Source: Gammaproteobacteria bacterium (GTDB lineage: Bacteria > Pseudomonadota > Gammaproteobacteria > Steroidobacterales > Steroidobacteraceae). Taken from it: a stretch of DNA of 64,000 nucleotides. The stretch spans positions 1-64,000 of the forward strand of contig JAJFKF010000080.1 of assembly GCA_021773365.1 (NCBI GenBank), given 5' to 3'. The notes under the pieces were generated by a model that was not told the DNA's origin, ran no database searches, and saw only the letters and a program-made list of their open reading frames with translations. Each line of letters starts with the position of its first letter. Position 1 is the first letter of the stretch. The translations under genes and the position numbers were made by a program. Of the stretch, positions 4,797 to 59,774 are shown piece by piece.

Positions 4797-4829
4797 CGAT
4801 ACGAATCTTTGGAACGCAAGGGGGCTTCG

Positions 4830-7737: not shown

Positions 7738-7743
7738 TATAAT
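7738..7743 (+). promoter_or_regulatory. Consensus -10 box of the ettA promoter
   Basis: A perfect TATAAT lies 37 bp before the ettA ATG. The -35 region about 17 bp upstream is weak. Its position shows that the in-frame extension beginning at 7714 would start upstream of the promoter, supporting the ATG at 7780. Confidence 0.55.
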
Positions 7744-7779
7744 GCGCCCCCTTTTTCCGGCAGCACCCGCACATCCCTC

Positions 7780-9444
<1,665 letters not shown>

Positions 9445-9455
9445 CGCAAGCGGTC

Positions 9456-9511
9456 GGGGTGGCAGCCGGGGGTGTTATCCATTTGCAGATAACACCCCCG
9501 GCCGCCACCCC
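9456..9511. terminator. Strong bidirectional terminator hairpin between convergent genes
   Basis: Positions 9456-9479 pair with 9488-9511 over 24 positions with a single mismatch (9464/9503), around an 8-base loop. It sits in the 76-bp gap between the converging ettA and thioredoxin genes, 12 bp from the first stop and 10 bp from the second. There is no clear T-run on either side, so termination may depend on the exceptional stem or Rho. Confidence 0.75.
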
Positions 9512-9520
9512 TGTCACTGG

Positions 9521-10633: not shown

Positions 10634-10750
10634 TTTTTGACTTCCCCGTGAATCAGCCCAGTCGCTGAGGTGCTGCGTAGACCGCACGCATCGCAGATTT
10701 GTTCCTGTCGGGGTGTTCCCAACCCGCCGACGGCAGCTTACCCTTGCCCG

Positions 10751-11932: not shown

Positions 11933-12096
11933 CCCGGACTCTGTCGTGATGCTGCGGGCCTCCCGGCGCAGGACAGGGCGCGGAGCCCGGGCCAGATCCG
12001 TCGCACCCCGGCGACAATAGGACTACACTTCGCCCCAGCCGCGACCGGCGATTTGGGGAAATGCCCCGCGGCCGTTGAATAATCAGAGGTAAACCG

Positions 12097-12804
12097 ATGT
12101 CGATCTACGTCGATGCCCACGGCCGTCTGCACCATCCGGAGCAGAATCTGGCTGTGACCTGTCCGCACTGCCAGGTGCTCTCGCATATCACGCCCATTGC
12201 TGTGCCGCAGTACGAACTGCTGATTACCACCCGTCCCAAGCAGGTCGGCGTGGTCTTCGTCTGCGATTCCTGCAACGCGCCGGTGTTCCTGAAGTTCAAC
12301 GTCAAGATGTACGCCGCCAGTCGTGTAGAGCTGTCCAGCACTTTCATCGAGCTGGAGCGCCCGCGAGAAAAATTCAGCTTCACCTACCTGCCCGAAGAGG
12401 TCGAGCAACTGTTCAAGGAGGCCATCAGTTGCTACACCACGGCCTGCTACAACGCTTTCGCCTCCATGTGCCGGCGCACCGCCCAGACCATGTTTGTCGA
12501 ACTCGGCGAATCCGGCAAATTGAAGTTGTTTGATGAACTGGCCCGTGTGGGCGAAATGGCCAGCATCGACGCCGACACCCACGCAGTGATCAAGAAAGTG
12601 ATCTTCGGCAACGAGAATGATCCGAAGCCTGCCATGCCGGTGCTGGATACCTACCAGGCAGGCATCCTGCTGGAAGTGCTCAAGGACCTGCTCTACCAGG
12701 CCTATGTGCGCAAAGGCCGCCTGCAGCAGGCCATGGCCATGCGCCGTTTCTTCGTCGATGAGCACAACGACAAGGTCACGCCGATCTCAAAGCTCGGCGC
12801 CTGA
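12097..12804 (+). CDS. Zinc-ribbon protein with DUF4145-like region
   Basis: A 235-residue soluble protein with two CXXC pairs (CPHC at about residues 25-28 and CDSC at about 65-68) forming a probable zinc ribbon. A helical region (EEVEQLFKEAISCYTTACYNAFASMCRRTAQTM) resembles the DUF4145 fold found in HEPN-like proteins and some restriction accessory proteins. Neither a signal peptide nor a membrane segment is seen. It is flanked by hutI and the convergent purL and shows no operon partner. The function is not known; a role in nucleic-acid or tRNA-end binding would be guesswork. Confidence 0.75.
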   Translation: MSIYVDAHGRLHHPEQNLAVTCPHCQVLSHITPIAVPQYELLITTRPKQVGVVFVCDSCNAPVFLKFNVKMYAASRVELSSTFIELERPREKFSFTYLPEEVEQLFKEAISCYTTACYNAFASMCRRTAQTMFVELGESGKLKLFDELARVGEMASIDADTHAVIKKVIFGNENDPKPAMPVLDTYQAGILLEVLKDLLYQAYVRKGRLQQAMAMRRFFVDEHNDKVTPISKLGA

Positions 12805-12849
12805 AGCCGAGCTGCGCTTCAGCCGGCGCAGCATTACTCGGGCAGGTTC

Positions 12850-15800
12850 CTAGCCGATCCAGGCACGGGCATTACGGAACATCCGCATCCACGGCCCGTC
12901 TTCGCCCCACTCCGACGGGTGCCAGGAGTTCTGCACGCTGCGGCTGACACGCTCCGGATGCGGCATGGTCACCGTCACCCGGCCGTCGCGGCTGCTCAGC
13001 CCGGCAACGCCACCCACCGCGCCGTTGGGATTATCCGGATAGCGCTGCGTCGGCTGATGGTGGTTGTCGACAAACCTCAGCGCGATCATCCCCGCACTCT
13101 GACAACGCTCCAGACCACCCTGCTCCGTGAATTGCGGTCGGCCCTCACCATGTGACACGGCAATGGGCATGATCGCCCCCGCCATACCGCGCAGCAGGAT
13201 CGACGGGGATTCAAGCACCTCCACCAGACTCAGACGTGCCTCGAACTGCTCGGAGCGGTTGCGCACGAACAATGGCCAGTGTTCGGTGCCGGGAATGATT
13301 TCGCGCAGCGCCGAAAACATCTGACAACCATTACATACACCCAGCGCGAAGGTGTCCGGCCGCGCGAAGTACTCGGCAAACTGATCGCGGGTGCGCGGAT
13401 GGAACAGGATGGACTTTGCCCACCCCTGCCCCGCACCCAGCACATCGCCGTACGAAAAGCCGCCGCAGGCCACCAGGCCGCGAAAGCCCTTCAGGCTGGT
13501 ACGGCCGGACAGAATATCGGTCATATGCACATCGTGCGGTTCAAAGCCGGCGCGCAAAAACACCGCAGCCATCTCACCCTGGCTGTTCACGCCCTGCTCG
13601 CGCAGGATAGCCACCGGCGGTCGGGCGCCGGTACCGATGCAGGGCGCGGCAATGTCCTCGGCGGGATCAAAGGTCAGCCGTACGCTCAACCCCGGGTCAT
13701 CATGATCGGCCAGCCGTTCGTACTCCTCATCGGCGCAGTCCGGATTATCGCGCAGGCGCTGCATCTGCCAGGAGGTCTCCGACCAGATGCTTCGCAGTGC
13801 CGTGCGCGAGGCCTCGAACAAAGCCTTGCCAGCGACAATGCGGATAACATCGCCGCTCACCGCGGCGCCCAGATCGTGAGTCCAGTCGGCAAGACCGTGC
13901 TCGCGCACAATTGCCTGCACCGCGGCCAGATCATCGGTGCGAACCTGAATCAATGCGCCGGGTTCCTCGGCAAGCAAGGCCGCAAGCGCATCGCCTGAGC
14001 CCATCTGAATATCAAGGCCGCAGTGTCCGGCAAAGGCCATTTCCAGCAGCGCGATGAGCGCACCGCCATCGGAGCGATCGTGATAGGCCAGCACCAGTTC
14101 GCGCTGCTTCAGCGCACACATGACGGCAAAGAAATCCCGCAACAGGCGCGGATCATCGAGATCCGCCGCCTCGCGGCCAAGCATGCCGTAGACCTGCGCC
14201 AGACATGACCCGCCAAGCCGGTTGCGTCCGCGACCCAGATCAATCAGCAACAGGCGCGTCTCACCGGCATCCAGTCGCAGCTGCGGCGTCAGCGTGCGGC
14301 GCGCGTCGCGCACCGGCGCAAAGGCGGAAACGATCAGTGAAACCGGCGCAGTGACCGTCTTCGATGCATCCGCTCCACTGTCATCGCGCCAGCTGGACTT
14401 CATTGACAGCGAATCCTTGCCCACCGGGATGGCAATGCCCAGTGCCGGACACAGCTCCTCGCCTACGGCTTTCACCGTGGCGTAGAGGTCAGCGTCCTCG
14501 CCTGGTTCACCGCAGGCGGCCATCCAGTTCGCCGACAGGCGGATCTTCTCCAGGCTTTCCACGTCGGCCGCTGCAATGTTGGTTACGGCTTCGGCAATGG
14601 CCAGGCGACCGGATGCGGGCGCATCGAGCAACGCCACCGGCGCACGCTCGCCCATGGCCATCGCCTCGCCGGTGTAGCCGATGTAGCTGCTGAGGGTAAC
14701 GGCCACGTCACTGACGGGGACCTGCCAGGGGCCGACCATCTGATCGCGGGCGGACATACCACCTACCGTCCGATCACCGATGGTGATGAGGAACGTCTTG
14801 TCGGCAATGGTGGGCAGGCACAGCAGGCGTTCGACCGCCTCGCGCAGATCGACATCGACGGGGCCGGAATCTCCTTTGCGGGACGACCGATGCACGTCGC
14901 GCAGCATGCGCGGGGGCTTTCCCAGCAAGACCTCGATGGACATGTCCACCGGCCGATTGGCGAAGTGAATGTCTTCGACGCGCAACTCGCCATCGTCGGT
15001 GATCTCGCCAATCTCCGCGTACGGACAGCGCTCGCGTTCACACAGCGTACGCAGCACATCGAGCGCATCGTGCTGCACGGCCAGCACGTAGCGCTCCTGC
15101 GCTTCGTTACACCAGATCTCCAGCGGCGTCATGCCCGGCTCGACGCTGGGAATACTGCGAAAATCAATGCGCGCACCGCGATGACTGTGCGCGACCGCTT
15201 CCGGCACGGCGTTGGACAGCCCACCCGCGCCCACATCGTGAATCAGCAGGATGGGATTGGCCTCACCCAGCGCCCAGCAGCGATCGATGACTTCCTGCGC
15301 CCGGCGCTGCATCTCCGGATTGCCACGTTGCACGGAGGCGAAGTCCAGGTCCTGCTGACTGGCGCCGCTGGTCACCGAGGATGCGGCGCCACCGCCAAGG
15401 CCGATCAGCATGGCAGGCCCGCCCAGCACCACGATGCGCGCGCCCACGGTGACGTCCTTCTTTTCCACATGCATGCGGCGCACGTTTCCCAGGCCGCCAG
15501 CGATCATGATGGGCTTGTGGTAGCCGCGACGCAGGTGCGGCGGATCACCGGGCACATGCTGTTCAAAGGTCCGGAAATAGCCGCACAGATTGGGACGACC
15601 GAATTCGTTGTTGAACGAAGCCCCGCCAATGGGTCCTTCCAGCATGATCCGCAACGCGCTGGCGCTGCGCGGTGAGTGCCCGAAATCCTCTTCCCAGGGC
15701 CGCACATGACCCGGAATGCGCAGGTTGGAAACCGAAAATCCCGTCAATCCCGCCTTGGCTTTTGCGCCCGTGCCGGTCGCTGCCTCGTCGCGAATCTCCC

Positions 15801-26961: not shown

Positions 26962-27957
26962 TTAGCGCATCTCGCGGATGACGATGGTGTTCCCGGCGCG
27001 TTCCGCCGAGAGCCCAGCGACACGCACCAGATAATCCGCAAGCGATTGCGGATCGTCTGCGTCGAAGACGCCTGAGTACTGGCGCATGCGCAACTGCTCG
27101 CCCTCGATGTGGATCTTGGGGGTGCGGTTGTAGCGGTTGAAGTCCTCCGCAATCTCCGCCAGCGTGTCGCCGCTGAAGGTGAAGCTGCGGTTACGCAGGA
27201 CGGCGGTTTGTTCGTTCATCGTCAGGACGCGAGCCTGGGCCGGACCCGTCGCCGGCACCTTGATCGCCTCGCCCGCGCCGAGGATGCGCTCACTGTTCAC
27301 TTCCACCCGGCCCTCGAGCACCGACACCGTCACGCTCGCGCTGCGCCGGTGCACCGCGAACTGGGTGCCGAGCACGCGCACCACGGTGTCCCCGCTGGTC
27401 ACCCGGAAGGGGCGGTTTGCGTCGCGCTCCACGGTGAACAGGGCTTCGCCCGCGGTCAGGTTCAAATCCCGCCGTTCGCCGGTCAGGCGCACCTGCACGC
27501 GCGAAGAGGGGTCCAGTTCGATCATCGAGCCATCCTCCAGCTCGATGGTCCGCTGCTCGCCGATGGCGGTGGCATAGGTCTGCCAGGAGCCCGGTCCGGC
27601 CAGCATCCACCACCCGCCGGCGGCGGCCGCCACCGTGGCGGCGATGCCCGCGCTCCATGGCCACCGGTGCGCGCTCATCGGCGCAGTGGTCTGTCCGGTG
27701 CGCCCGCTGCCTAGACTGACGACATTGCTGACACCCGTCGCCGTCGCCAGGATGTCGTCCACGTCAAAGTCCGAAAGGTCGGTCTGGCCCGCTTCCTTGT
27801 CCAGGGCGGATGCCAGCAGGAACTCCTTCACGTGCTGCGGGGAAGCCTTTATCCACGCGGTGAATGCCGCCCGTTCGGCGTCGCCGCCGCGATTCAAGGC
27901 GCCAACCCAGCGGGCGGCCTGTTCCGGCATACCGTTTTCGGGTTGCTGAATGTTCAT
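26962..27957 (-). CDS. FecR-type anti-sigma/signal transducer (locus B)
   Basis: A 331-residue inner-membrane FecR protein: cytoplasmic DUF4880-like head (QAARWVGALNRGGDAERAAFTAW), one membrane segment near residues 100-120, and periplasmic FecR domain with YATAIGEQRTIELEDGSMIEL and GEALFTVERDANRPF. The ATG at 27957 overlaps the sigma stop by four bases as ATGA; a GTG nine bases upstream is possible but less likely. It would hold sigma factor B inactive until the receptor at 28647 signals through its STN domain. The 169-bp gap to the kinase gene downstream contains nothing I can name. Confidence 0.92.
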   Translation of the reverse strand: MNIQQPENGMPEQAARWVGALNRGGDAERAAFTAWIKASPQHVKEFLLASALDKEAGQTDLSDFDVDDILATATGVSNVVSLGSGRTGQTTAPMSAHRWPWSAGIAATVAAAAGGWWMLAGPGSWQTYATAIGEQRTIELEDGSMIELDPSSRVQVRLTGERRDLNLTAGEALFTVERDANRPFRVTSGDTVVRVLGTQFAVHRRSASVTVSVLEGRVEVNSERILGAGEAIKVPATGPAQARVLTMNEQTAVLRNRSFTFSGDTLAEIAEDFNRYNRTPKIHIEGEQLRMRQYSGVFDADDPQSLADYLVRVAGLSAERAGNTIVIREMR

Positions 27958-28541
27958 CGGTCCCACTGCATCCTTCGCAACTGGGTGCGTGCCTGCGTTA
28001 GACAGGTTTCAATCTTCCGTGCCGAAATTCCCAGCTTCGTGCCAATCTCTTCATAGGAATATCCGTCCCGTTTGTGCAGGAGAAATACCGCCAGGTGCAT
28101 GGCCGGGAGCTTCCCCAGCGCCGCCCGAAGCTGCTTCTGCATGTCCAGACGGTCGGTCATCTCGTCCGCCGCGACTTCGACCGGCTGTTCCGCCAGTTGC
28201 TCCACGGTCTCCGAATCGTAGGTGATCCAGCTGCGGTTGCGTCCCCGCATGCGGAACTCGAACACCACATGCGAGGCGATGCCAAACAGGTAGGCCCGGG
28301 GCTGCTGCACCATCTCGCTGTGGTCGATCCGCGAAAGGCGCATGAACACCTCCTGGGCCAGGTCTTCCGCATCCTCCGTGCGGCGCAGTCGGCGCATGAG
28401 GAACCGGTGCAGCTCGGCCGCATAGTTCTCGAAGGCCGACCCCGCGAAACTCGCGGCCCGGCTGGTTGTGCCTGCCTTGATCAAGGGCGTGCCCTGTTTT
28501 TTTCCGAGGCGGACCGTCCGACGGTCCCCGCCTGGGAGCAT
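27954..28541 (-). CDS. ECF RNA polymerase sigma factor, FecI-like (locus B)
   Basis: A 195-residue ECF sigma factor: region 2 at about 45-95 (TEDAEDLAQEVFMRLSRI, QPRAYLFGIASHVVFEFRMR) and region 4 at about 140-190 (LGKLPAMHLAVFLLHKRDG, YEEIGTKLGISARKIETCL). The first 25 residues are extra compared with minimal FecI proteins, so the true start might be internal. It is transcribed divergently from its probable target receptor at 28647 and overlaps the FecR gene by four bases. The 105-bp divergent region must hold both promoters. Confidence 0.92.
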   Translation of the reverse strand: MLPGGDRRTVRLGKKQGTPLIKAGTTSRAASFAGSAFENYAAELHRFLMRRLRRTEDAEDLAQEVFMRLSRIDHSEMVQQPRAYLFGIASHVVFEFRMRGRNRSWITYDSETVEQLAEQPVEVAADEMTDRLDMQKQLRAALGKLPAMHLAVFLLHKRDGYSYEEIGTKLGISARKIETCLTQARTQLRRMQWDR

Positions 28542-28596: not shown

Positions 28597-28650
28597 ATGA
28601 AAACCACCACACCAGTGCCGCATCAGACCTGCAAAAGGGGAGTTTCATGA
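28597..28650 (+). CDS. Possible 17-residue leader peptide overlapping the receptor start
   Basis: An ATG at 28597 preceded by GGGGAATTTC opens a 17-codon frame (MKTTTPVPHQTCKRGVS) whose TGA overlaps the receptor ATG as ATGA. The two ribosome-site regions, GGGGAATTTCATGA and GGGGAGTTTCATGA, are near copies, so the second may have arisen by a short duplication. It could couple translation of the receptor to its leader, or be fortuitous. Confidence 0.3.
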   Translation: MKTTTPVPHQTCKRGVS

Positions 28651-31600
28651 ACGCGTTTCACCGTATCGCCGCAATTTTTCTGCTTGGGGTCCTGGGCCAG
28701 GCAGCCACGGCGCAACAAACCGGATCGACCATCGCCGTGAAGATCGATGCGCAGCCCATGGAACGTGCCCTCCAGTCCTTCGCCAGGCAGAGCGGTCTGC
28801 AGGTGATCTTCCCGACGGACCTGGCCAGGAACCTGACTTCTCCGCCGATCGACGGCCGGTTCAGCCCGCGGATGGCGCTGAATCTGCTGCTGGCTGGCAC
28901 GCAACTCTCGTATGAGTTCGTGAACGACAAGACCATCGCCATCCGGTCCGCTTCGATCGCCAGGGGCGGTGGCACCGGAGCCGTGCAGCAGGGCGGTGCG
29001 GAAATGCGGCTGGTCCAGGTCACCCCCCAGCAGGCGGCTTCTGCCCAGGCGAATCAGCCCGCCACGGTAGCGCGGCCCCCGCAGACCGCAGAGGAAGCCA
29101 GCGAACTGGAGGTTGTCTCCACCAGGATCGACGGCCTGAACAAGAAGTCGATCTTCCAGGCCACCGAGGAAGCGGCGCTGCCGTACAACGTCATGGACCG
29201 CGAGGAGATCGCGCGCATGGGCGTGACCAGCATCGATGAACTGTTCCGCAACATTCCCGAGATCACCGGCTACGGCAACAACACCCAGTCCCTGGTCGGC
29301 AACACGAGCAATTCAGGTGGCGCCACGTATTCCGCCAACTCGGTGAATATGAACGGTTTCGGCTCACAGCAGACGGTGGTGCTGGTCAATGGCCGCCGCC
29401 TCGGTGAGGCAACCCAGTTCGTGGGTCCTGACATCAGCCGCATTGCGATCGGATCGATCGAACGCATCGAGATCCTGCCCGCGGCGGCTGCGGCCATCTA
29501 CGGCGGCGGCGCCGCCGGCGGCGCCATCAACATCATCATGCGCAAGGAATACGAGGTCAAAGACCTGACGACGTACTTCGGCGCCGGCAGCAATGGGGGT
29601 GGCGAAGAGCTGCGCTCGACCTATGTCGACGGCCGCGCCTTCAACGGCGGCAGAACCCGCCTGACCTCGACCTTCGACTTCAGCAAGCGCCAGCCGCTGC
29701 GGGTGGGCGAACGCGATTTCCTGGATCGGGCGCTGCAACGGTACGGGCAGGACACCTCATACCAGATCAGCGGCCGCTCGGCTTTCGAGAGGGTTTTCCT
29801 TACCGCAACGGGCGCGCCTGTGGGCACCATAGTTTCCAACAGCGCGACACTGGGGCTGGGCATCCCCGGCAATCCGGGGGCCCGGTATGCGGCCATCCCC
29901 ACCGGCATCACCACCGCCGAATCCGCAGCGTTGACCCGCAATTCATTCGTGGCCACCGCCGGCACCTACAACCAGGGCACCCGCTTTGAGCGCTCCCTGC
30001 TGTACCGTCCGGTGGAGAACTACAGCTTCGGTGCTCAGTTGGAGCACGCCCTCCTGTCCGATGAAAAGCTCTCGCTGTTTTTCGAAACGGTGGTGTCCTA
30101 CCAGCGCCAGGACTACAGCTACCCCTCCTTTCAACGATGGAACCTGGAGGCGAACCACATCTTGAACCCGTTTCGCGATACCGATGGAGCCGGCCCGCTC
30201 GTGGGCGTACCCATCATCGTCTACATGGATCCTACCGATCTTGAGGACTCCAGTGATCTGCAGGAGCGCACGGATGCCCGCGTAACGGTGGGCCTGAAAG
30301 GCAAGATCGGCCCGCGATGGGACTGGATGTTCGACCTGTCCGCGCAACGCGGCGCCGCTGATTCCACCAGTTCGCAACCGGCAAACTACGCATATTACTT
30401 CGCCCGCACCAATGTCAGCACAGGCTCCCCTGCAGCCTCGCTGGCGGAGCGGTGGGCGGTTTACAACCCGTTCCAGGATCATGTGCAGTATCCAAACAAC
30501 CAGCCTGAACTCTGGCATTTTGTGCGCAACAGCTACTATATAAACAAGAATGCCGAAGGCGCCTTCCGTGCAGTGGGCACTCCGTTCAACCTTCCGGCAG
30601 GCGCCGTGAAGCTCTCCCCCGGCATGGATGTGCGTCTGGATCACAACACCTTTGCACAGGACTACGATGTGAGTGAGGAGGCGTTCGAACTGCTGGGACA
30701 AACCAGCGGCACCCAGAAAAGCGGCAATTCCAGAACCACCTATGGTGCCTTCCTCGAGGCGAACATTCCGGTGTTCAGTCCGAAGTGGAGCCCCCTGGGA
30801 CTGCATTCCCTCGATTTGAACCTGAGCCGTCGCTATGACGATTCCAATCGCTCCGAGCAGGTGAGTTCCGACACCCTCGCGATGCGCATCTCCATCGTGA
30901 AGGATGTGATGTTCCGGGCGTCGAGGACCAATGGATTCGTGCTCAACCGCAACAACACGGATACCTTCGCGGCGAGCCAGGATGTTCTCATCAACATCCA
31001 GGATCCGCGTCGTGGCAATGTGTCCACCTCCACCCTCGTGCCCACCTATATCACCGGTGGAAACCCGGATCTGAAGACGGAGTTCATCGAGTCCACCAAC
31101 TACGGTGCACTGCTGCGGCCGCGCTTCATTCCCGGTTTGTCGGTGAACGTGAACTACTTCGAGAACGAGCGGCTCGATACGCCCGCCTCGGTCACGCTGG
31201 CCAACCTGCTTAACTTCCCGGACGACTACCTGGGCCGTCTGGTACGTGCGCCGCTGACCGCTTCGGACACGCAAGCGGGATACACCGGCGGAGCCATCCA
31301 GTCCATCGACCTGCGCCGGATAAATCTCCAGCGAGTCCTCCAGCGTGGTGTGAACTACAACATCAACTACAGCCTTCCCGTCCCGGCGGAGTTTGGTGCG
31401 GTGGACTGGGCCATCAAAACCACCAACTATCGCACCTACATCCGGCAGGTTCGTCCCGGGGTGGCGCCTGTCGAATACGTGAACGCCCAGAACCAGCCGT
31501 TGAGCTGGAGGGGCAGCAGCAGCATCTTCTGGAAGCGTGGCCGTACGCTTGTCGGTGTGACCGGCAACTACATCAATTCCTACTTCGCGAGCACGACCGC

Positions 31601-31883
31601 GCCGTCGCCCTCGCTGCCTACCGCGAGCGGGGTCGATGGACCGAAGATCAAACACCAGCTGACCTTCGATCTCCAGCTGGGCTACGAGATTCCGCAGGGA
31701 ACCCTGGCGGGTCGCGGGTGGCTGAGCATCTTCGATGGCACCGACCTGCGCTTCGGCGTGCTGAACGTGCTCGACACCATGCCGCCGATGTACACGGATA
31801 CTTCCGGTTTCTACAGCCGTTATGCGGATCCGCGCCAGCGTTATCCGTACCTCTCGGTCAAGAAGAACTTCGGAGGGAAATGA
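28647..31883 (+). CDS. TonB-dependent transducer/receptor with STN domain (locus B)
   Basis: A 1078-residue outer-membrane receptor. A signal peptide (FHRIAAIFLLGVLGQAATAQ) is followed by an STN domain at about 32-100 (AQPMERALQSFARQSGLQVIF), a linker, a TonB-box-like segment (LEVVSTRIDGLNKKS), the plug (TSIDELFRNIPEITGYG, VNMNGFGSQQTVVLVNGRRLG) and a long barrel ending SVKKNFGGK. The ATG is preceded by AAAAGGGGAG. The plug has the AAAIYGGGAAGGAINIIMRKEY form seen in receptors for large or peptide-like ligands in high-TonB-content bacteria. Its regulators sigma B and FecR B lie just upstream on the other strand. Confidence 0.93.
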   Translation: MNAFHRIAAIFLLGVLGQAATAQQTGSTIAVKIDAQPMERALQSFARQSGLQVIFPTDLARNLTSPPIDGRFSPRMALNLLLAGTQLSYEFVNDKTIAIRSASIARGGGTGAVQQGGAEMRLVQVTPQQAASAQANQPATVARPPQTAEEASELEVVSTRIDGLNKKSIFQATEEAALPYNVMDREEIARMGVTSIDELFRNIPEITGYGNNTQSLVGNTSNSGGATYSANSVNMNGFGSQQTVVLVNGRRLGEATQFVGPDISRIAIGSIERIEILPAAAAAIYGGGAAGGAINIIMRKEYEVKDLTTYFGAGSNGGGEELRSTYVDGRAFNGGRTRLTSTFDFSKRQPLRVGERDFLDRALQRYGQDTSYQISGRSAFERVFLTATGAPVGTIVSNSATLGLGIPGNPGARYAAIPTGITTAESAALTRNSFVATAGTYNQGTRFERSLLYRPVENYSFGAQLEHALLSDEKLSLFFETVVSYQRQDYSYPSFQRWNLEANHILNPFRDTDGAGPLVGVPIIVYMDPTDLEDSSDLQERTDARVTVGLKGKIGPRWDWMFDLSAQRGAADSTSSQPANYAYYFARTNVSTGSPAASLAERWAVYNPFQDHVQYPNNQPELWHFVRNSYYINKNAEGAFRAVGTPFNLPAGAVKLSPGMDVRLDHNTFAQDYDVSEEAFELLGQTSGTQKSGNSRTTYGAFLEANIPVFSPKWSPLGLHSLDLNLSRRYDDSNRSEQVSSDTLAMRISIVKDVMFRASRTNGFVLNRNNTDTFAASQDVLINIQDPRRGNVSTSTLVPTYITGGNPDLKTEFIESTNYGALLRPRFIPGLSVNVNYFENERLDTPASVTLANLLNFPDDYLGRLVRAPLTASDTQAGYTGGAIQSIDLRRINLQRVLQRGVNYNINYSLPVPAEFGAVDWAIKTTNYRTYIRQVRPGVAPVEYVNAQNQPLSWRGSSSIFWKRGRTLVGVTGNYINSYFASTTAPSPSLPTASGVDGPKIKHQLTFDLQLGYEIPQGTLAGRGWLSIFDGTDLRFGVLNVLDTMPPMYTDTSGFYSRYADPRQRYPYLSVKKNFGGK

Positions 31884-33095: not shown

Positions 33096-35270
33096 TCACT
33101 GCGCGCGCTGCTGCCCGGGCGCCGCGGATTCTGGCTCGGCCGTCTTGGGGGCGCCGGAAGCGGGTATGCGCATGGCCGCGGTGCCTTCCATCTTCTTGAA
33201 CGCTTCCTCGACTTGCGTCGCGCGATTCTCGCCTTCCTTCTGGATATCCTCAGGCACACTATCAACGCCGGCTTTCGCCAAGTAGTACTCCACAAGAGCA
33301 GTGGGTTTATTCTCGTCGCGCGGCATACCCAGCGCACGGCCGACAATCCTTCCGTCGCGGTCGATCACGAACTGTGTGGGCAGGCCCTTCACTCCATACA
33401 GCGACCTTGCGGCGCGGCCAGGCGACCGCTCGGCCGAATCGAAGGCATACCGGACGTCAGGGAACTTGCGCTGGTTCTTCGCAATCCAGCCTGCGAAAGC
33501 GGCGCGCGCATCGTCCGTACCCGAAGCGAGCACTACCACGTCGTGGTCCTTGTACTTCGCGGCCAGCCCCTGCATGTGGGGCATGGCCGCCACGCAGGGA
33601 CCACACCAGGTGGCCCAATAGTCCAGTACGACTACCTTTCCGCGGTAGTCGGACAGCGTCACGGACTTGCCGCCGGCATCGATCATCGTGAAATTCGGCG
33701 CCATTGCACCGATGGGCAGTAGAGGAGTGGTGGGGGCGCCCAGCTCGGCGCATATATCCAGCCCGCCGCCGCCCTCGGCCCGGACTCGCGGCATCGCTCC
33801 CGGCGGTGGCTTGGAATCCCCGTTGGTTTTCTTCGCGGGGGCCGTTGCGCCGGGATCCCTCATGGACCTTTGAACCGGGACCGCAGAGCCGTCCAATTTT
33901 TTGAACTCCTCCTCGGCACGAGCAGCGTTCTCCTCACCTGTCGTCGCCACTTCTTCCGGCACCTTCACGCCCGCCTGCGACAGGTAGTACTCCAGCAAAG
34001 CGGTGGGACTGGCAGAGCCCTCGCGCGGCGTGCCCAGGGAGCGGCCGACGATTTTGCCGTCTCGGTCGATCACGAACTGCGTGGGCAGGCCTTTCACGCC
34101 GTACAGTGCATGCGATGCACGATTGGATGCGCGTTCGGCCGGATCGTGCGCATACACGATGCCGGGGAACTTGCGCTGGTACTTGCTCACCCAGCCCTCA
34201 AAGGCCGTCCGCGCATCGTCAGTGGCGGACCCCAGCACCACCACACCCTGATCCTGGTATTTTTCCGCCAGCTCCTGCATGTGGGGCATGGCCGCCACGC
34301 ACGGACCGCACCAGGTGGCCCAGTAGTCCAGCAGCACCACCTTGCCGCGGTAGTCCGACAGCTTAACGCTCTTGCCGCTGGCGTCGACCATGGTGAAATC
34401 CGGGGCCATCGCTCCGATGGGCAGTAGTGGAGCGGCGGCGGCGCGTTGACGTGCGCGTTCTTCCTCAATCCGTTTGTTGTATTGCGCGACCATCTCAGCG
34501 GTGAACACGCGTTTCGGGGCATCTTGCGGCTGCGGCTTCACCCCGGCGAGCAGCAGGAGATTCCCCAACCCTTCCCGCCCATGCTCATCGTCGGCCATGG
34601 AAACAGGGTCGCTGTTCCGACGCGGCGGGGCGCCAACGGAAACAACGCCGGCTAGTTTGCCGTCGCCGTCGAACACGACGGCGGCGGGCATGTCTGGGAC
34701 CGAGTAGTACACTCCCGGCCGCAGGGGCTCCCCGACGTAGGAGAGTTGGCCGACGACCGACGCCTTGAGGATGGCCATTCCCTCGTTCTGCAGCTGTTTG
34801 AGCTGCTGCGCGGTGACCTTTGACATATCAGCCGGCCGCGGTGCCAGCGGGCCCGCCGGATCAAACAACACCGGGAACGAATACCGGCCCTTGTTTGCCG
34901 TGAGCCACTGCTGAAAGTCTTCCCGCTTGCAGAACGTCGCGACGCCCACCACCCTCACGTCCTGCTTTCCATAGTCCCTGGCCAGCCTTTCAATGAATGC
35001 CAGGTTATCGCCTTCCGGACCTTTGTCCCAGAAAAACAGCAGGGTGCGGCCGTGGACATAGTCGCGCAGAGACACCGTTTTGCCTTCGGCGTTCTGCGCG
35101 CGCGCGTCGGGCAGGGGCTGGCCCATCATCAAGCCACCCAGCCGGCTCTGGAAAGGCGGATGGTCAGGAGTGGGCTGCTGCGCCAGTGAACAGACACTCC
35201 CGGTGACTAACATCACTGCAGTCGCGATGTAAAGCACCAGGCGGCCCGGGGAACGATGGAACGATTTCAT
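33096..35270 (-). CDS. Secreted three-module TlpA/redoxin-like protein (locus C)
   Basis: A 724-residue exported protein made of three redoxin-fold modules. After a signal peptide (residues about 1-30), module 1 (44-215) has no CXXC (FFWDKGPEGD occupies that position). Modules 2 (about 282-440) and 3 (about 517-675) are close tandem copies, each with YWATWCGPCVAAMPHM; the active sites are C321/C324 and C556/C559, and each has a KGLPTQFVIDRDG cis-proline loop. TlpA-like proteins reduce disulfides in the periplasm using electrons from DsbD-type partners. It follows the TonB receptor by 15 bp on the same strand with an AAGGAA ribosome site, so it is the last gene of the locus C operon. Triple modules in one chain are unusual. 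Confidence 0.88.
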   Translation of the reverse strand: MKSFHRSPGRLVLYIATAVMLVTGSVCSLAQQPTPDHPPFQSRLGGLMMGQPLPDARAQNAEGKTVSLRDYVHGRTLLFFWDKGPEGDNLAFIERLARDYGKQDVRVVGVATFCKREDFQQWLTANKGRYSFPVLFDPAGPLAPRPADMSKVTAQQLKQLQNEGMAILKASVVGQLSYVGEPLRPGVYYSVPDMPAAVVFDGDGKLAGVVSVGAPPRRNSDPVSMADDEHGREGLGNLLLLAGVKPQPQDAPKRVFTAEMVAQYNKRIEEERARQRAAAAPLLPIGAMAPDFTMVDASGKSVKLSDYRGKVVLLDYWATWCGPCVAAMPHMQELAEKYQDQGVVVLGSATDDARTAFEGWVSKYQRKFPGIVYAHDPAERASNRASHALYGVKGLPTQFVIDRDGKIVGRSLGTPREGSASPTALLEYYLSQAGVKVPEEVATTGEENAARAEEEFKKLDGSAVPVQRSMRDPGATAPAKKTNGDSKPPPGAMPRVRAEGGGGLDICAELGAPTTPLLPIGAMAPNFTMIDAGGKSVTLSDYRGKVVVLDYWATWCGPCVAAMPHMQGLAAKYKDHDVVVLASGTDDARAAFAGWIAKNQRKFPDVRYAFDSAERSPGRAARSLYGVKGLPTQFVIDRDGRIVGRALGMPRDENKPTALVEYYLAKAGVDSVPEDIQKEGENRATQVEEAFKKMEGTAAMRIPASGAPKTAEPESAAPGQQRAQ

Positions 35271-35285
35271 TGATGATTTCCTTGG

Positions 35286-38200
35286 TCAGAACGCGCGGTA
35301 TAGCGAGAGCGCGTACCGGCGCAGGCGTGAATCGACAACGGTGTTGTCGGGGAAGAACACGTCGCTGAACGGCGGGCGCTTGTTAAAGAGGTTGTAGACC
35401 GTAAGGCTGATCTTGGTATTGGCGAGAATACCCGGCGCCCTGACTTTGCCGAAGTCATAGCTGTACTGCGCATCCCAGCGGATCGCGGAGGGCGTGAAGG
35501 CAACGGTCGGCGTGGCGCGGTTAGCCGCCCGGTAGGTGACCAGCGTGCCAAGTCCCCACGCTTCGCGGAGGAAAAACAGGTTGCCGCTCAATTGCGCGGG
35601 AAGGCTGTCCACATTGATCGCAGGCGATGGCGCACCGCCAGGCGTGGGAATAGAGACATTTTTGGTGTACTTCGTGGCGCCGGCATTGGCCTGCAGAACG
35701 CCGCCGGCGAGATTGCGATCGTATTTCACGTTGATGTCGTAGCCGGTGATCTGGCTCAGCGCCACATTGATTGGCCGCAGATCGGCCGCGATGACCGGCC
35801 CGGCCCAGCCCGGCTGATCGGTGCCCAGGTTGGCGCCACGGGTTAGGCGCTCCGGAAACAGGAGCGCTGTTTGGTTGAACGTCAGTGTGCTGATACGGTC
35901 GCGATAGGTATTGTCGAACCAGTCAAATGACAGCGACACACCGGTGAGGAAAGGAATGTCGGCGACGATACCGGCGGTGGTGTTCTCGGAGGTCTCGGAC
36001 CGCAGATCCGCATTGCCGCCCCTGGTGAGCGGGTGTACCGGATTGATCGTGTTGCCGCGCAGGGGATCGAAGCTGGCTGCAACCGGCACTGTAGAACTGT
36101 TCAAGACCCGGATGGGCTGCGTGCGCTGTTGCAAGGTGGGGATCTTGGAGCCCTCGCCATAACTGCCCCGCAGCAGCAGCCAGGAGGCTGGACGCCACGC
36201 AATTCCGACGCGCGGATTGGTGGAGGCACCGCCCGCGCCGTAGTCCTCGGCGCGGTAGGACATCAGGATATTGAGCTGGCGCAGGAGGGTCCGCTGATAG
36301 TCCCGACCGAAGAGCGGCACACTCACCTCGGCGAAATAGGCGAAGACATCATCGCTGCCGGCCTGCGCGGTGATCACATCCGTCGACGTGCGCAAGGGAA
36401 AATCGGCGGATTCCTCGCGCCGCTCGACGCCGAACGCGGTGACGATGTCGCCGGCCGGCAGCGACCACACCGGGCCGTCGAACTGGAGCGTATAGGCACG
36501 GATCTGGTTCTTCTCCTCGTTGCGAGTCAGGGAGGTCAGCGCCTCGATCACACCGGGGGCGTTGGGATTGCTCACGCGTGAGCTGTCATAGAAGAGGTTC
36601 GGCGTTTGACCGGCAGCAACGGCCGCATTGAACAGCGTAGAGGAGATCGATGTGCCGCCTTCACCGTCCAGACGCGTGAGGCTGTCCGCAATACTCATCG
36701 ACAGATCGTAGCGCCAGCTTTTCGGCAGGTCGCCCGCGGCGCCGGCAGTCCAGGCCCAGGTCTCATTCAGCGCGGTGAGCCTCGGCTGCACGTCGTAGAA
36801 GGTTTTGTTGAGATACACCGGAATGCCGAAAGGATTGCCCGGATAGCCCGCCGGAATGGTGAGATACACCGCTTGCACCGGTGCGGTGAGCTGGAAGTTA
36901 CGGTCGCGCGCGAAGCGCGCAGTGGCATACAGACCGAGTGCATCGTTGATCGAGTAGTCAAACTTGGTGAGCACTGAGTAGCGGTCGTACGATGCGGCAT
37001 ATTGTGTGTACTGCGCGGCATCATACAAACCGCTATCGGTGCCTGCGGGCACATAGTCCGCGACAGCGAGGCCCGCCCCGCTGGTACCGGACGGGATGGC
37101 CGACACTGAAGTGGTCAGGCCCGGCAGCGGCGCGCCAGTGAAGACCGTGACGGTGCCGGCGCCGCCGGCGGATATGCGCCGGTCGGTGCCGCCGAAGGGC
37201 CGACGATCGAAGCTGGCGAGAAAATCGCGGTCGCGGAGCATCATGGCGTTGGCCTGCTCCCACGAGACGGCCAATAGTCCCTGGAGCTTTTCGGTTCCGA
37301 AGCCATGCGAGAGACTACCAGTCACGACGCCGGCATCGGAGTCGAAGGTGTTCTCGTAACCGACCCGGGCATCGGTGCCAGAATAATTTTTCTTGAGAAT
37401 GACGTTGATGACGCCACCCATCGCGTCCGCTCCGTACAAGGAGCTGGCCCCGTCGAGCAGCACCTCGATGCGCTCGACAGCCGCCAGCGGGATGCCGCTG
37501 AGATCGAAGCCGTCGCCACCACTGGACTGGTTGTTCTTCGGCACACGTTTCCCATCCACCAGGAGCAGCGTGGCGCCGGCGGGCGCGCCGCGTAAAGTGC
37601 CAGTCACCATGCCGGCGGTGTGGGACATGGACTTCGGCGCCCCATAGGTGGTGAGGGCGCCGGTGGCCAGGTTAACGCTGGTGACGGTTCCGTTTTGCGT
37701 GTTTGCCTGGCCGGTGGTGAACGCCGACACCTGGGGGATGTAGCGCAGCAATTCGCCAATCGACTGCACGCCGGTGCGATCGATCTGTGCGCGGTCGATG
37801 ATCAACACGGGCTGCGCCGTGGCATCGCTTAGCAGGCCACGCAGGCGAGTGCTGCTGACGGTTAGCTCGCCCTTTTCCGTGTCAGCGGCGGAAGGCTCTG
37901 CCACCTGCTGCTGCCTGGGGAGCTCGCTGGCGGGCTCTGCCTTTTCCATAAGCGGGTCGACTTCCGCGAGATTTACGCCTCTGTCCTGCATCCCGACCGA
38001 ATTGGAGTGGTTTTTTCCCTGAGGCAATACGATCACCATCGCCCCCGACTGCCCATCCACCCGCATCGTGAGCGGCGTCCCTTCCAGCAACTTCAGGACC
38101 GCCGCTTCGGCCGACAACTCCCCACTTACCCCCTGAGTTCGCAATCCCTTCAATTGCTCCGACTTGTAAACCAGTTCCACGCCTGACTGTTTCGCTAGCT

Positions 38201-38330
38201 TCTCCAGCGCCAGGGTCAAATCTCCCGGCGGCACCTCCACACGTTTCCAGTCCGCCAGCGCAGTGCCCGCGCACAACAACGAACAAGCAATTGCAATCAG
38301 TGCGGATCGCATCTTTTGGGACTTCAACAT
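35286..38330 (-). CDS. TonB-dependent transducer/receptor with STN domain (locus C)
   Basis: A 1014-residue receptor from the ATG at 38330, which has GGGGGAG six bases upstream and opens a signal peptide ([17 protein letters not shown]). The STN domain follows at about 28-95 ([21 protein letters not shown]), then a linker, a TonB box ([14 protein letters not shown]), plug ([18 protein letters not shown]) and barrel ending [11 protein letters not shown]. The late loop [24 protein letters not shown] closely resembles [24 protein letters not shown] in the locus D receptor, so C and D receptors are near paralogues. It is followed by the thioredoxin gene after 15 bp and preceded by sigma-FecR on the same strand. 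Confidence 0.93.
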
Positions 38331-38422
38331 GTCAGTCTCCCCCGTGAGGCTCTGTGGCCGTGTGGGAACCGTGACGATGGAGCGCGAAATATCCCACACA
38401 TCTCGTGAGACATATTTCCTGG

Positions 38423-39445
38423 TTATTGCTGGGGAGCGTCCGTCAAAACGATCGTCGCGCCCTTATCCACCCATTCAATCGCAAAGCCATCGTGGAGCAA
38501 TCTCAGGAATGCACCCACGTTCGTCGAGCGGAAATTGCCGCCGATCCGCACGTCCGCAAGTGCAGGATCCTCAATGACAATCTTGCGTTCGGTGTAGCGA
38601 TTGAATTCAGCCACCGCCTCCGCTAGCGGCGTCCCGCGAAACATCAGATACCCGCTGCGCCAGCTCAAACTCTGCTCGACTTCCTCTACCGGCCTCTCCT
38701 GGATCAGCACGCCTTCGCCCCCGCTCCGCGCGACGCCGCCCGCGGTAATTTCGGCCGGCATCCCGAACCCGTTAGTGCCGCTGCCCTCGATCCGGACCTT
38801 CCCTTCAGTCACAGCCACGCGCAATCCTCCTGCATCGCGGCGGACCGAAAATTTGGTGCCAACCGCGATCACGCGCTCACTGCCTACTGACACGATGAAA
38901 GGACGCGCGGAGTCCTTCGCGACTTCAAAGAAGGCTTCACCGTGGTCCAACTCGATGCGTCGCTCCTTTTCGTTGACCTCGATGCGAATCTTGCTGTCCG
39001 TATTGAGCGTTACAAGGGAACCGTCGGACATGGGAACGGCCTGAATCGCTCCGATCTGCGTGCGATAAGACCCCCCGCCTGGAAACAAATCACCAGCAAC
39101 ACCCAGCACGACAGCAACCATGACACTGGCCGCGACGGCGAACCACAGCCTTTTGGGCGCCGCGACTCTCCGCTTAGCCGCGGATGTGGCCTGCATTTGC
39201 TGAAAGAACGGCGACAACGTCCACTCCCCAGGCGCCGGCATCACGCCCGGTTTCGCCCCCGCACCCAAAGCCTGTAATCGCCCCATCTTGCGCAATGCGG
39301 CCTCGAGCCGGAGGTAGGCGACGCGATGCGCCGTGGGTTTGAGCCAATCGTTGAGCTCAGCCTGATCCGCCTGTGACCAAACGCCCCCATCCCGCTTCGC
39401 GACCCAAGCCGCGGCCTTTTCTTCGATGTCGACGCTACTATCCAT
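38423..39445 (-). CDS. FecR-type anti-sigma/signal transducer (locus C)
   Basis: A 340-residue FecR protein with cytoplasmic head ([28 protein letters not shown]), a membrane segment at about 110-130, periplasmic FecR domain ([39 protein letters not shown]) and the C-terminal DUF4974-like domain. The ATG at 39445 has an AAGGAGGGA ribosome site and overlaps the sigma frame by eight bases; the 22-codon extension upstream is not needed. It regulates the sigma factor encoded just before it. Confidence 0.92.
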
Positions 39446-40010
39446 GGTCCATCCCTCCTTCCAACTTCTCGATTCCCTTCCATGCTCCATCGGCTGCCGA
39501 CCGGGTGCCAAATACGTAGTCCGCCACGCGCCGGAGCCCTTTTGTCACATGCCGCTCCACCGTTTTTTCATCAACGCCGAGGAGCATCGCCACCTCCTTC
39601 TGCGGCATATGCTCTACCTTGCGCATCCACAACACCCGGCGGCACTTGGGCGGCAACCCATCGAAAGCCTGCGCCAAGCGCTTGAGCTCCTGCCGCCCGG
39701 CCACTTGCCGCTCCGGGGTGATCTCATCTACCAAGACGTTCAGGAAGTCCATATCCCCAACTGCCTCGATGGACACGATGCGGCTGCGCCGCACCCGGTC
39801 GGCCATCAGGTGCCGGGCAGAGCTGAACAAAAATGATTTCGCCGCATAGGGACGGGACTTTCCCGCTGCCTCATAGACCCGGATGTAGGCCTCCTGGCGC
39901 AGGTCATGGACATCATCCTGGTTGGGCCACACGCGCCGCAGATACCGGACCAGCGCCTCCTCGTGCGCGAGGATCTCGCGCTCGAACCAGCTGTCCAGGG
40001 TCTCTTCCAT
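39438..40010 (-). CDS. ECF RNA polymerase sigma factor, FecI-like (locus C)
   Basis: A 190-residue ECF sigma factor: region 2 (VHDLRQEAYIRVYEAAG, AKSFLFSSARHLMADRVRR) and region 4 (LPPKCRRVLWMRKVEHMPQK, VAMLLGVDEKTVERHVTKGL). The ATG at 40010 and a GTG at 40019 are both possible starts with weak ribosome sites. It begins the sigma-FecR-receptor-thioredoxin operon on the minus strand and is the last complete gene before the integrase remnant and tRNA-Ser. Confidence 0.9.
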   Translation of the reverse strand: MEETLDSWFEREILAHEEALVRYLRRVWPNQDDVHDLRQEAYIRVYEAAGKSRPYAAKSFLFSSARHLMADRVRRSRIVSIEAVGDMDFLNVLVDEITPERQVAGRQELKRLAQAFDGLPPKCRRVLWMRKVEHMPQKEVAMLLGVDEKTVERHVTKGLRRVADYVFGTRSAADGAWKGIEKLEGGMDHG

Positions 40011-40337
40011 GAAGGTCACACTACAGCGAAGACACAGAGAAATACACCGTGGTTTTTGTTTTCAAAGGCAGTGTGGGGTAGCCGCGTTTCAATCGTCTCG
40101 GTTAGGTCAGGAGGTCAAACTCCACGACGGTTCCGTTTGTCATGCAGCGCAGCGGCAAATCTGCCGTTGTCTACGCCTTACTTCGGTGGCCGCAATGACG
40201 AAAGTCTTTCGCGGCTGGATGTAGAGAAATTTCGCGCGGACGTGGGCGATGGCGTTCCAGAGGCTGCCGGCTGGCTCGGGAAGCCAGATTGCCCGGCGTG
40301 CGGGGAGAGGAACGCTCCTGGTGTGCCCGTCGGTCAC

Positions 40338-57539: not shown

Positions 57540-59774
57540 CTATTTTCTAAGGTGCAAGTCGAAAAAAGCGATCACCTGCTGCCAGTAATCGCTGAGATGG
57601 GCCGGCGTGGCCAGCAAATGCCCCTCGCCCTCGTAGCGCAGATACGTGGCGTCTTTTTTCAGGTGTTGCAAGCCAACCCATACCGCATCCGAGTGATTGA
57701 TGATCCCCGCATCATCCGCGCCTGCCTGAAGGATCAACGGCGTGGTAATGCGGTCCAGATAGTAGATGGGCGAATTCTGCATGTAGCGCAGCGGCACCTC
57801 CCACGGCGCGCCGCCCATGGCGCCGGCGTTTTCCTGTAAAAACGGAATCCACCCTCCGCCGCGGGTACCGAAGAATGCCGTCAGATCGCCAAAGCCGGAG
57901 TTCACCACGGCGGCTTTGAAGCGCTGAGTCTGAACGATCAAAGCCAGCGTCGAGTAGCCGCCGTTGCTTTGTCCCATCACCGCCAGCCTTTCCGGATCGG
58001 TAATGTCCAACTCAACTGCGCGATCGATGGCGGGCATGACGGATTTCATCAGGTCCTGCATGGGGGTGCCTTGATGTACCGGTACGTCCGGATACAGAAC
58101 AGCATATCCCCGGGTAGCCAGCATCTGCAGGTTGAACTGCGGCATGCCGCTGAGCCCGAAACGATTCACATAACGCGAACCGCGGATGCCGGCATACACC
58201 CATACGACGGTGGGATGAGGGTGTCCTTCACTATGATCCGGCGGCAGCAGCACACTGGCTTGCAACGGCTCGCCATCGCTGCCGAGGTACTTGATGAGGC
58301 GGCTGGCGCCGAAGCGATATCGGCCAAGGGCTGGATTCAGCAACGTGAACGCGGTTGCCTGGGTGAACCGGGTATCTATGATCCGGTAATCCTTGCCTTC
58401 CTGCGATCCTTCGGCCAGGTAAAGCAATTGTCGCCCATCGGGCAGTACGACGGGCTCAGTGCCAGTGGAGATCAAATACGTCTTTTCCTCCTCGTAAAGA
58501 GAATGCATCTGCCCGGTCGAAACGTTCACGCGCGCAAAGCCGTAGCGCCCTCGCGCTGGATAGGCAACCGCGGCGTACAAAGCGCCGCCTGCAGCGGACG
58601 TCCACAAACGACTGTTGCCAGCTTCCCATACGAAGGACCGTACCTCAGCGGTTGGGTCGCTCGTCAGCCGACGGATGCGGCCTTTGTCCAGCGCAGCGCT
58701 CCAGATTTCTCCCGCGCGAATGGCATAAAGCGTACGGCTGCGCGCGTCCCACGCCGGAACAGCCCCGCACTCGACCGTGCTACCTTCAGCGGTGCTGCCG
58801 AATGTTCGCGTGATCCCGCCGTCGGCGCTGACCACGCTCAGAATGCCTCTTTCCGTTTCGCCACCACTGATGCTGATGGGGTCGCGAGCGGAGGTCCTGA
58901 CTTCGCTCGCAAGGTCTCTGGCGATGTACGCAATCCACTTCGAATCGGGTGACCAGGTGATTCTTGAAGAGAATCCGAACACGCCCGAGAAAACCTTGCG
59001 TACTTCGCCGCTGGCCAGAGCAACCGACGCTATACTGCCATCGAAACCAAACACCTGCGGATGCGGCCGCAGGCCCTTTACGGCTTCTATCCAGGCCAAG
59101 GCGCTCCCGTCGGTTGAAAGGCTCATCGGAGAAGCAATGAAAACGTCACTGGCCAGGCGCTTCACCACGCCCGTGACCACATCCAACAAACCCACATCGA
59201 CTGTATCGGGATTATCCCCTTCACGGCTCAGGGTGATAAACAGACCCCTGCCGTCCAAGGTCCATACCGGCGCTACATTGGCAAATCTATTTCGGGTGGT
59301 GACATCTGCAAGCTTGCGAAATTGATTGGTCTCTTTCTCCCACACCCATACGTTAGGCTGTCCGTCGCGATCGGAATAAAAAGCTAGCCGGCTGCCATCA
59401 GGCGACCATACCGGACTCCAGCTATTACCCGCGCCCGCCGTCAAGTTCCGGGCCACTCCACCGTCCGCAGGATAAAGCCAGATATCACTGCCGAGACTGC
59501 CGTAGGCAGACCCCTGCGTCGAGATGTTTTCGCTTTTGTTGTTTTCAGCCGTAATCTTGAGCGGATCGACGATGGTCAGCGCCACACACGCCGAGTCCGG
59601 TGAAAATGCCGGCGCGCTGGTGTAATGGGGCTTCCTTGGCGCTGTAGCGTCCTGGATCTCCAGCGCGGGTGATGGCAGCGCATCACCCGGCAGGGCGAAA
59701 GACAACAAGCAGATTACAGACGCTGGAACTGACAACCACGGCATTCCAATGCGGATGAATATGCCGGAACGCAT
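57540..59774 (-). CDS. Exported S9-family (prolyl-oligopeptidase-like) serine peptidase (locus D)
   Basis: A 744-residue two-domain peptidase. A signal peptide (PASVICLLSFALPGDAL) precedes a beta-propeller of WD/TolB-like repeats (SPVWSPDGSRLAFYSDRDG, ITWSPDSKWIAYIARD) to about residue 480. An alpha/beta-hydrolase domain follows with nucleophile S603 in MGQSNGGYSTL, acid D687 or D688 in LQAGADDAG and H719 in YEGEGHLL. It starts 10 bp after the receptor stop and ends the FecR-receptor-peptidase operon. The same gene order occurs with the lasso-peptide isopeptidases; whether this enzyme has that activity is untested. Starts at 59774 and 59744 are both possible. Confidence 0.9.
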   Translation of the reverse strand: MRSGIFIRIGMPWLSVPASVICLLSFALPGDALPSPALEIQDATAPRKPHYTSAPAFSPDSACVALTIVDPLKITAENNKSENISTQGSAYGSLGSDIWLYPADGGVARNLTAGAGNSWSPVWSPDGSRLAFYSDRDGQPNVWVWEKETNQFRKLADVTTRNRFANVAPVWTLDGRGLFITLSREGDNPDTVDVGLLDVVTGVVKRLASDVFIASPMSLSTDGSALAWIEAVKGLRPHPQVFGFDGSIASVALASGEVRKVFSGVFGFSSRITWSPDSKWIAYIARDLASEVRTSARDPISISGGETERGILSVVSADGGITRTFGSTAEGSTVECGAVPAWDARSRTLYAIRAGEIWSAALDKGRIRRLTSDPTAEVRSFVWEAGNSRLWTSAAGGALYAAVAYPARGRYGFARVNVSTGQMHSLYEEEKTYLISTGTEPVVLPDGRQLLYLAEGSQEGKDYRIIDTRFTQATAFTLLNPALGRYRFGASRLIKYLGSDGEPLQASVLLPPDHSEGHPHPTVVWVYAGIRGSRYVNRFGLSGMPQFNLQMLATRGYAVLYPDVPVHQGTPMQDLMKSVMPAIDRAVELDITDPERLAVMGQSNGGYSTLALIVQTQRFKAAVVNSGFGDLTAFFGTRGGGWIPFLQENAGAMGGAPWEVPLRYMQNSPIYYLDRITTPLILQAGADDAGIINHSDAVWVGLQHLKKDATYLRYEGEGHLLATPAHLSDYWQQVIAFFDLHLRK

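What the first reader, a model, noticed from the sequence alone, without database searches (positions are those of the whole stretch)
33096..40010. Sigma-FecR-STN receptor operon ending in a triple-redoxin protein
Locus C couples a signalling TonB receptor to a 724-residue secreted protein with one CXXC-less redoxin module and two nearly duplicated TlpA modules (C321/C324 and C556/C559). A receptor-linked periplasmic disulfide reductase suggests import of a disulfide-containing ligand that is reduced after entry. I know of no described system with this layout in proteobacteria.
Basis: inference. Interest (0 to 1): 0.7.

Follow-up and report, generated by a model that had tools for sequence, protein, structure and literature searches.

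The report
Signalling receptor operon with secreted redoxin
A bacterial surface receptor that senses and imports a molecule is encoded next to a secreted thiol-disulfide enzyme, and this is not a one-off: the same 4-Mb genome carries about 149 such sensing receptors, of which about 43 are followed by a protein of the same thioredoxin-like fold, which suggests that many of its unknown imports are processed at sulfur bonds as they enter.

Summary
On the minus strand, 40019 to 33096, lie a FecI-type sigma factor, FecR, an STN TonB receptor and a 724-residue secreted protein with one Cys-less redoxin module and two 75%-identical TlpA/ResA modules (C321/C324, C556/C559). It is one instance of a genome-wide theme. 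The genome (3.97 Mb) holds 150 STN and 91 AhpC-TSA domains. Of 149 STN receptors, 43 are followed by Trx-fold genes; 33 have a redoxin as the very next gene (about 3 expected). Linkage follows the receptor tree, 40 of 42 linked redoxins look exported and nearly all keep CXXC, so the pairing looks functional. The genome is an outlier: no other genome sampled has more than 10 STN matches, and the pairing was absent from the 13 checked. "No described layout in proteobacteria" is too strong: a Stenotrophomonas TBDR-pTFP pair was published in 2026. That pair needs a CQNC receptor motif, absent from all 149 receptors here; the finding's mature receptor has no cysteine. Best reading: a receptor-induced periplasmic thiol-disulfide oxidoreductase acting on the imported ligand (inferred). 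New variant of a known kind, notable for its scale.

The parts
39438..40019 (-). FecI-type ECF sigma factor (193 aa)
   Evidence: Sigma70_r2 and r4_2, sigma70-ECF TIGR02937 above cut-off
38423..39511 (-). FecR-type sigma regulator (up to 362 aa; true start uncertain, TTG as called)
   Evidence: FecR and FecR_C above cut-off, DUF4880 just below
35286..38399 (-). STN TonB-dependent receptor (up to 1037 aa; likely start at the internal ATG near 38330, followed by a signal peptide); no Cys in the mature part
   Evidence: Plug and barrel; Cys only at 39 and 43, within the signal peptide
38052..38174 (-). STN signalling domain of the receptor
   Evidence: alignment with PupA, FpvA, FecA and HasR signalling domains
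33096..35270 (-). Secreted triple-redoxin protein (724 aa)
   Evidence: AhpC-TSA in three stretches; ResA/TlpA-like by sequence and by fold
34842..35126 (-). Redoxin module 1, without CXXC
34047..34418 (-). Redoxin module 2, TlpA/ResA type, CGPC at C321/C324 (34299-34310)
33723..33893 (-). Linker between modules 2 and 3 (residues 460-516), predicted disordered
   Evidence: pLDDT under 50 in a low-confidence model
33342..33713 (-). Redoxin module 3, copy of module 2 (75% identical), CGPC at C556/C559 (33594-33605)

Best explanation
This is a FecI/FecR cell-surface-signalling operon. When the STN receptor binds its ligand, FecR releases the ECF sigma factor, which transcribes the receptor and the gene behind it. 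That gene makes a secreted TlpA/ResA-type thiol-disulfide oxidoreductase with two catalytic modules and one Cys-less module. It most likely acts in the periplasm on the imported ligand: it reduces a disulfide, or exchanges thiols, so that the ligand can be unfolded, cleaved or made to release its cargo. Its electrons would come from the inner-membrane DsbD. The locus is one of about 43 receptor/Trx-fold operons of an expansion in this lineage, each presumably tuned to its own ligand. Shown: anatomy, recurrence, inheritance of the linkage along the receptor tree, export signals, conserved CXXC, no Cys in the receptor. Inferred: induction by the ligand, direction of the redox reaction, and that the ligand is the substrate.
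For: Anatomy. Recurrence: 43 of 149 STN receptors are followed by Trx-fold genes, 33 with a redoxin as the next gene. Linkage clusters on the receptor tree: 27 changes against 35.4 +/- 2.2, none of 1000 shuffles lower; receptor and redoxin distances correlate, r 0.20, p 0.02. 40 of 42 linked redoxins have export-like N-termini; nearly all keep CXXC. Receptors are almost free of Cys. A DsbD-type protein is encoded. Other receptor operons end in S9, S41 or Met-zincin peptidases, and one has a redoxin followed by a Met-zincin peptidase.
Against: No ligand is known and no disulfide in it is shown. 62 receptors have no downstream gene, so the step is not needed for most ligands. Co-inheritance of receptor and redoxin is only moderate (r 0.20), so partners are exchanged. 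The exact pair is not conserved outside this genome. The direction (reduction or oxidation) cannot be read from the sequence.
Confidence: 0.5

Rival explanations
1. The redoxin is a general envelope thiol-repair or oxidant-defence enzyme, placed behind receptors because uptake (for example of iron, heme or redox-active compounds) causes oxidative or disulfide stress, not because it processes the ligand.
For: TlpA/ResA-like enzymes commonly serve envelope proteins (general knowledge); 39 or so of the 80 redoxin genes of the genome are not behind an STN receptor.
Against: A general enzyme would not need about 40 diverged copies under separate receptor control; linkage follows the receptor tree.
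Confidence: 0.2
2. Metal release: the ligand is a metal chelate and the redoxin reduces the metal centre or a thiol ligand so that the metal is let go, as is thought for some metallophores.
For: FecI/FecR receptors mostly serve iron carriers (PMC9249621); a TBDR/Trx-fold pair is induced by combined Mn and Fe limitation in Stenotrophomonas (PMC13217887).
Against: No metal-responsive or inner-membrane metal transport gene lies in this operon; the co-operonic enzymes seen elsewhere are peptidases and hydrolases.
Confidence: 0.15
3. Binding rather than catalysis: the redoxin modules, above all the Cys-less one and the helical N-domain of its paralogues, act as periplasmic ligand-binding or holding proteins.
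For: One Cys-less module here; confident all-helical N-domain of unknown role in the common paralogues.
Against: CXXC is kept in nearly all linked redoxins in spite of wide divergence.
Confidence: 0.1
4. As proposed for the Stenotrophomonas TBDR-pTFP pair, the redoxin reduces a cysteine pair in the plug of its own receptor.
For: Same gene order, receptor followed by Trx-fold protein; published proposal (PMC13217887).
Against: No CQNC motif in any of 149 receptors; 34 of 41 redox-linked receptors have no Cys after residue 40; the finding's mature receptor has none.
Confidence: 0.02

Closest known systems
FecI/FecR/FecA cell-surface signalling (FecA, FpvA, PupA, FoxA, HasR)
   Same: ECF sigma, FecR-type regulator and STN receptor in one operon; STN region aligns with PupA, FpvA, FecA and HasR
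   Different: A secreted triple-redoxin gene follows the receptor; no inner-membrane transporter gene in the operon; about 149 receptor sets in one genome
TBDR-pTFP locus of Stenotrophomonas maltophilia (PMC13217887, 2026)
   Same: TonB receptor followed by a periplasmic thioredoxin-fold protein with CXXC
   Different: There: MntR control, CQNC motif in the plug, a single Trx fold with CAPC. Here: sigma/FecR control, no Cys in the mature receptor, three modules with CGPC in two
TlpA / ResA / DsbE thiol-disulfide oxidoreductases
   Same: Modules 2 and 3 match ResA and TlpA in sequence and fold, with WATWCGPC
   Different: Three modules in one protein, one without Cys; placed in a receptor operon rather than with cytochrome maturation genes
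SusC/SusD loci of Bacteroidota with FecR and TlpA-like genes (general knowledge; one partial example L052)
   Same: Regulator, TonB receptor and Trx-fold protein close together
   Different: No SusD gene here; other phylum; redoxin N-domains are not recognised as DUF4369 except weakly in one of 20
Pseudoalteromonas plasmid NZ_CP133572 TlpA-DsbG-TBDR cluster
   Same: Two thiol-disulfide proteins beside a TonB receptor in a gammaproteobacterium
   Different: Redox genes precede the receptor; two-component genes and no sigma/FecR next to it

Membership tests
FecI/FecR/FecA-type cell-surface signalling | ECF sigma gene and FecR gene beside the receptor | tested here: met
FecI/FecR/FecA-type cell-surface signalling | STN signalling domain on the receptor | tested here: met
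   weak Pfam score, but aligned with solved signalling domains
FecI/FecR/FecA-type cell-surface signalling | Ligand-dependent induction of the operon through FecR | not testable with these tools
   needs expression data
TBDR-pTFP module (Stenotrophomonas) | CQNC motif in the receptor plug | tested here: not met
   absent from all 149 receptors and all called genes
TBDR-pTFP module (Stenotrophomonas) | Exported Trx-fold protein with CXXC encoded behind the receptor | tested here: met
TBDR-pTFP module (Stenotrophomonas) | MntR box and neighbouring mntR/mntH | tested here: inconclusive
   No metal regulator noticed among neighbouring ORFs; the MntR motif was not searched
TlpA/ResA thiol-disulfide oxidoreductase | Trx fold with WCxxC active site and cis-Pro loop, exported | tested here: met
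   modules 2 and 3: WATWCGPC and GLPT; signal peptide
TlpA/ResA thiol-disulfide oxidoreductase | Reducing activity fed by DsbD or CcdA | not testable with these tools
   A DsbD-type gene is present; activity needs an assay
SusC/SusD locus | SusD gene beside the receptor | tested here: not met
   The operon holds only sigma, FecR, receptor and redoxin

The most novel reading that the evidence does not exclude
One bacterial lineage built a guild of 40 or so separately induced receptor/oxidoreductase pairs, each importing a different disulfide-containing peptide (for example cyclised or defensin-like peptides of its neighbours) and reducing it on entry, alongside sister operons that use peptidases to the same end.
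Probability: 0.2. Interest if true: 0.85.

Novelty: new variant of a known kind. Interest (0 to 1): 0.6.

Why it matters
A dedicated thiol-disulfide step coupled to ligand-sensing outer-membrane import, repeated about 43 times in one genome, would point to a class of TonB-imported substrates with few known examples and offers a natural set for testing it. The expansion itself is striking: about 149 signalling receptors in 4 Mb, against 121 TonB-dependent proteins of all kinds predicted for Bacteroides thetaiotaomicron (PMC9249621).

Tried and rejected
Uniqueness of the locus: rejected. Receptor as redox substrate: rejected for lack of Cys. Chance adjacency: rejected. DUF4369-type N-domain: not supported. 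Conservation in relatives: not found; in 120 family genomes every listed match outside this genome covers only the TlpA part of the N-domain+TlpA profile, and in 399 phylum genomes (few candidates scored per genome) the single outside match does too. Redoxin near FecR in eight FecR-rich genomes: 0 of 52 listed sites within 8 kb. The genome-contig scan returned mainly Pedobacter and Planctomycetes redoxins without a receptor in reach, one exception being L052. The plasmid search gave only partial matches, none covering 80% of the query. Assembly contamination as the cause of the expansion: unlikely; stated contamination is 0.74%, GC of the fetched stretches is even (62.8 +/- 1.5%) and the 16S contig itself carries four STN receptors. 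Host species: not named by the tools; the 16S reads by eye as gammaproteobacterial, no more.

Full report
OBSERVATION. Four minus-strand genes run from 40019 to 33096: sigma (193 aa), FecR (up to 362 aa), TonB receptor (up to 1037 aa) and a 724-aa redoxin protein. The receptor's STN score alone is under the curated cut-off (23.3 against 28.4 bits), but the region aligns with the solved signalling domains of PupA, FpvA, FecA and HasR. The redoxin has Cys at 27, 114, 321, 324, 507, 556 and 559. Modules 2 and 3 are 75% identical in protein and 76% in DNA, so module 3 looks like a fairly recent internal copy; module 1 is 32% identical to module 2 and lacks CXXC. The closest solved relatives are ResA and TlpA-like proteins. 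A model of the whole protein is poor overall (mean pLDDT 61.6) but shows three Trx-type units and a disordered stretch between modules 2 and 3.

THE GENOME. The window lies in a 3.97-Mb, 157-contig assembly (99% complete, 0.74% contamination) that holds 150 STN domains and 91 AhpC-TSA domains in 80 genes. I fetched 1.39 Mb around these sites, called genes with a simple codon-usage caller and found 149 sigma, 156 FecR and 149 STN receptor genes. Behind 33 receptors the next gene is a redoxin, and behind 5 more a redoxin follows later in the operon. With related Trx folds (Thioredoxin_7, a divergent redoxin) the total is 43 of 149; 62 have no downstream gene, 35 have other genes, 9 run off a contig. 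About 3 next-gene redoxins are expected by chance if the genome has about 3600 genes. Two more triple-redoxin genes (C48, C107) and three double ones (C4, C90, C119) also follow STN receptors. The C48 triple is the nearest paralogue of the finding (48% over residues 32-541).

IS THE LINK FUNCTIONAL? On a tree of 138 receptors, Trx-fold linkage needs 27 changes against 35.4 +/- 2.2 for shuffled labels (none of 1000 lower), and receptor and redoxin distances correlate weakly (r 0.20, p 0.02). Twenty of 41 linked receptors have a linked nearest paralogue, against 20 of 93 unlinked ones. Forty of 42 linked redoxins have export-like N-termini; nearly all keep CXXC, mostly CGPC, although their sequences have diverged widely. 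The common form has a confident all-helical N-domain followed by a TlpA domain; the best structural matches are TlpA/ResA-like, for the C-terminal part. Receptors carry almost no cysteine: 34 of 41 linked ones have none after residue 40. So the redoxin's partner is unlikely to be the receptor. A DsbD-type transmembrane protein is encoded elsewhere. Among other receptor operons the last genes include S9, S41 and Met-zincin peptidases and erythromycin-esterase-like hydrolases; one operon has a redoxin and then a Met-zincin peptidase. No glycoside hydrolase turned up among those annotated. This hints at peptide-like ligands; it does not prove it.

HOW COMMON IS IT? No other genome of the genus is held. 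For FecR the first-look candidates are 175 here against at most 28 in 398 phylum genomes. Five sister genomes have 12-23 AhpC-TSA domains, none near a listed STN site. In eight FecR-rich genomes none of 52 listed FecR sites has a redoxin within 8 kb. In the family search the full N-domain+TlpA profile is matched along its length only in this genome; the phylum search, which scored few candidates per genome, agrees. These are samples, not a full survey.

WHAT IS KNOWN. A 2026 paper describes a TBDR-pTFP locus in Stenotrophomonas maltophilia: an MntR-controlled TonB receptor with a CQNC plug motif followed by a periplasmic Trx-fold protein, with synteny in Lysobacterales, Sphingomonadales and Opitutales; the authors suggest that the pTFP reduces the CQNC pair (PMC13217887). 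Our locus shares the gene order but fails the CQNC criterion, so it may work in a comparable place but is not a member. A Pseudoalteromonas plasmid has TlpA-DsbG-TBDR. In Bacteroidota, TlpA-like proteins beside FecR/SusC loci are familiar from general knowledge; one partial example appeared here (L052). For scale, Bacteroides thetaiotaomicron has 121 predicted TonB-dependent proteins of all kinds (PMC9249621).

MECHANISM. Most likely: ligand binding releases the sigma factor, which induces the receptor and the redoxin; the redoxin, kept reduced through DsbD, reduces or exchanges a disulfide in the imported ligand in the periplasm. Anatomy, recurrence and the exclusion of the receptor as substrate are shown. 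Induction, redox direction and the ligand as substrate are inferred.

LIMITS. Gene starts and operon calls come from a simple caller; signal peptides from a heuristic; the contigs are a draft; the ligand and the host's biology are unknown. Several searches scored only the first candidates of each genome. Only part of the downstream genes was annotated, and the chance expectation rests on an assumed gene number.

Noticed in passing
whole genome G000; in the window 4809-7610, 28647-31883, 35286-38399, 59785-62928: About 149 STN receptors with 149 sigma and 156 FecR genes in a 4-Mb genome, a lone outlier in its family, class and phylum samples. This expansion is more surprising than the single locus.
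   Followed up: partly
57540-59774 (-): S9 peptidase behind another STN receptor of the window; its best NCBIfam hit is the Atxe2-type lasso-peptide isopeptidase, well below that model's cut-off. Lasso-peptide uptake and opening is a possible analogue of the redoxin operons.
   Followed up: no
L193:10856-12109 and L194:810-2711 (contig C90): Four redoxin genes in a row behind one STN receptor.
   Followed up: no
L213:5581-9338 (contig C117): STN receptor followed by a redoxin and then a Met-zincin (DUF4953/DUF5117) peptidase in one operon.
   Followed up: partly
L126:5940-7292, L237:5257-6498 and other members of cluster K1: Erythromycin-esterase-family proteins behind several STN receptors; role unknown.
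   Followed up: no
26962-28541 (-) and 28647-31883 (+): In the window another STN receptor has its sigma and FecR-like gene pair divergently oriented, whereas the finding's set is co-directional; both layouts occur across the genome.
   Followed up: no
L235:1737-3608 (contig C152): Fusion of a DsbA-like thioredoxin domain with a Na+/H+ antiporter, two genes behind an STN receptor.
   Followed up: no
L267 (Pseudoalteromonas plasmid NZ_CP133572): TlpA, DsbG and a TonB receptor side by side: another thiol-disulfide/receptor cluster in Gammaproteobacteria.
   Followed up: no
L052 (Sphingobacterium hungaricum), 7534-14490: Redoxin, sigma, FecR and TonB receptor side by side on one strand in a Bacteroidota genome.
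   Followed up: no
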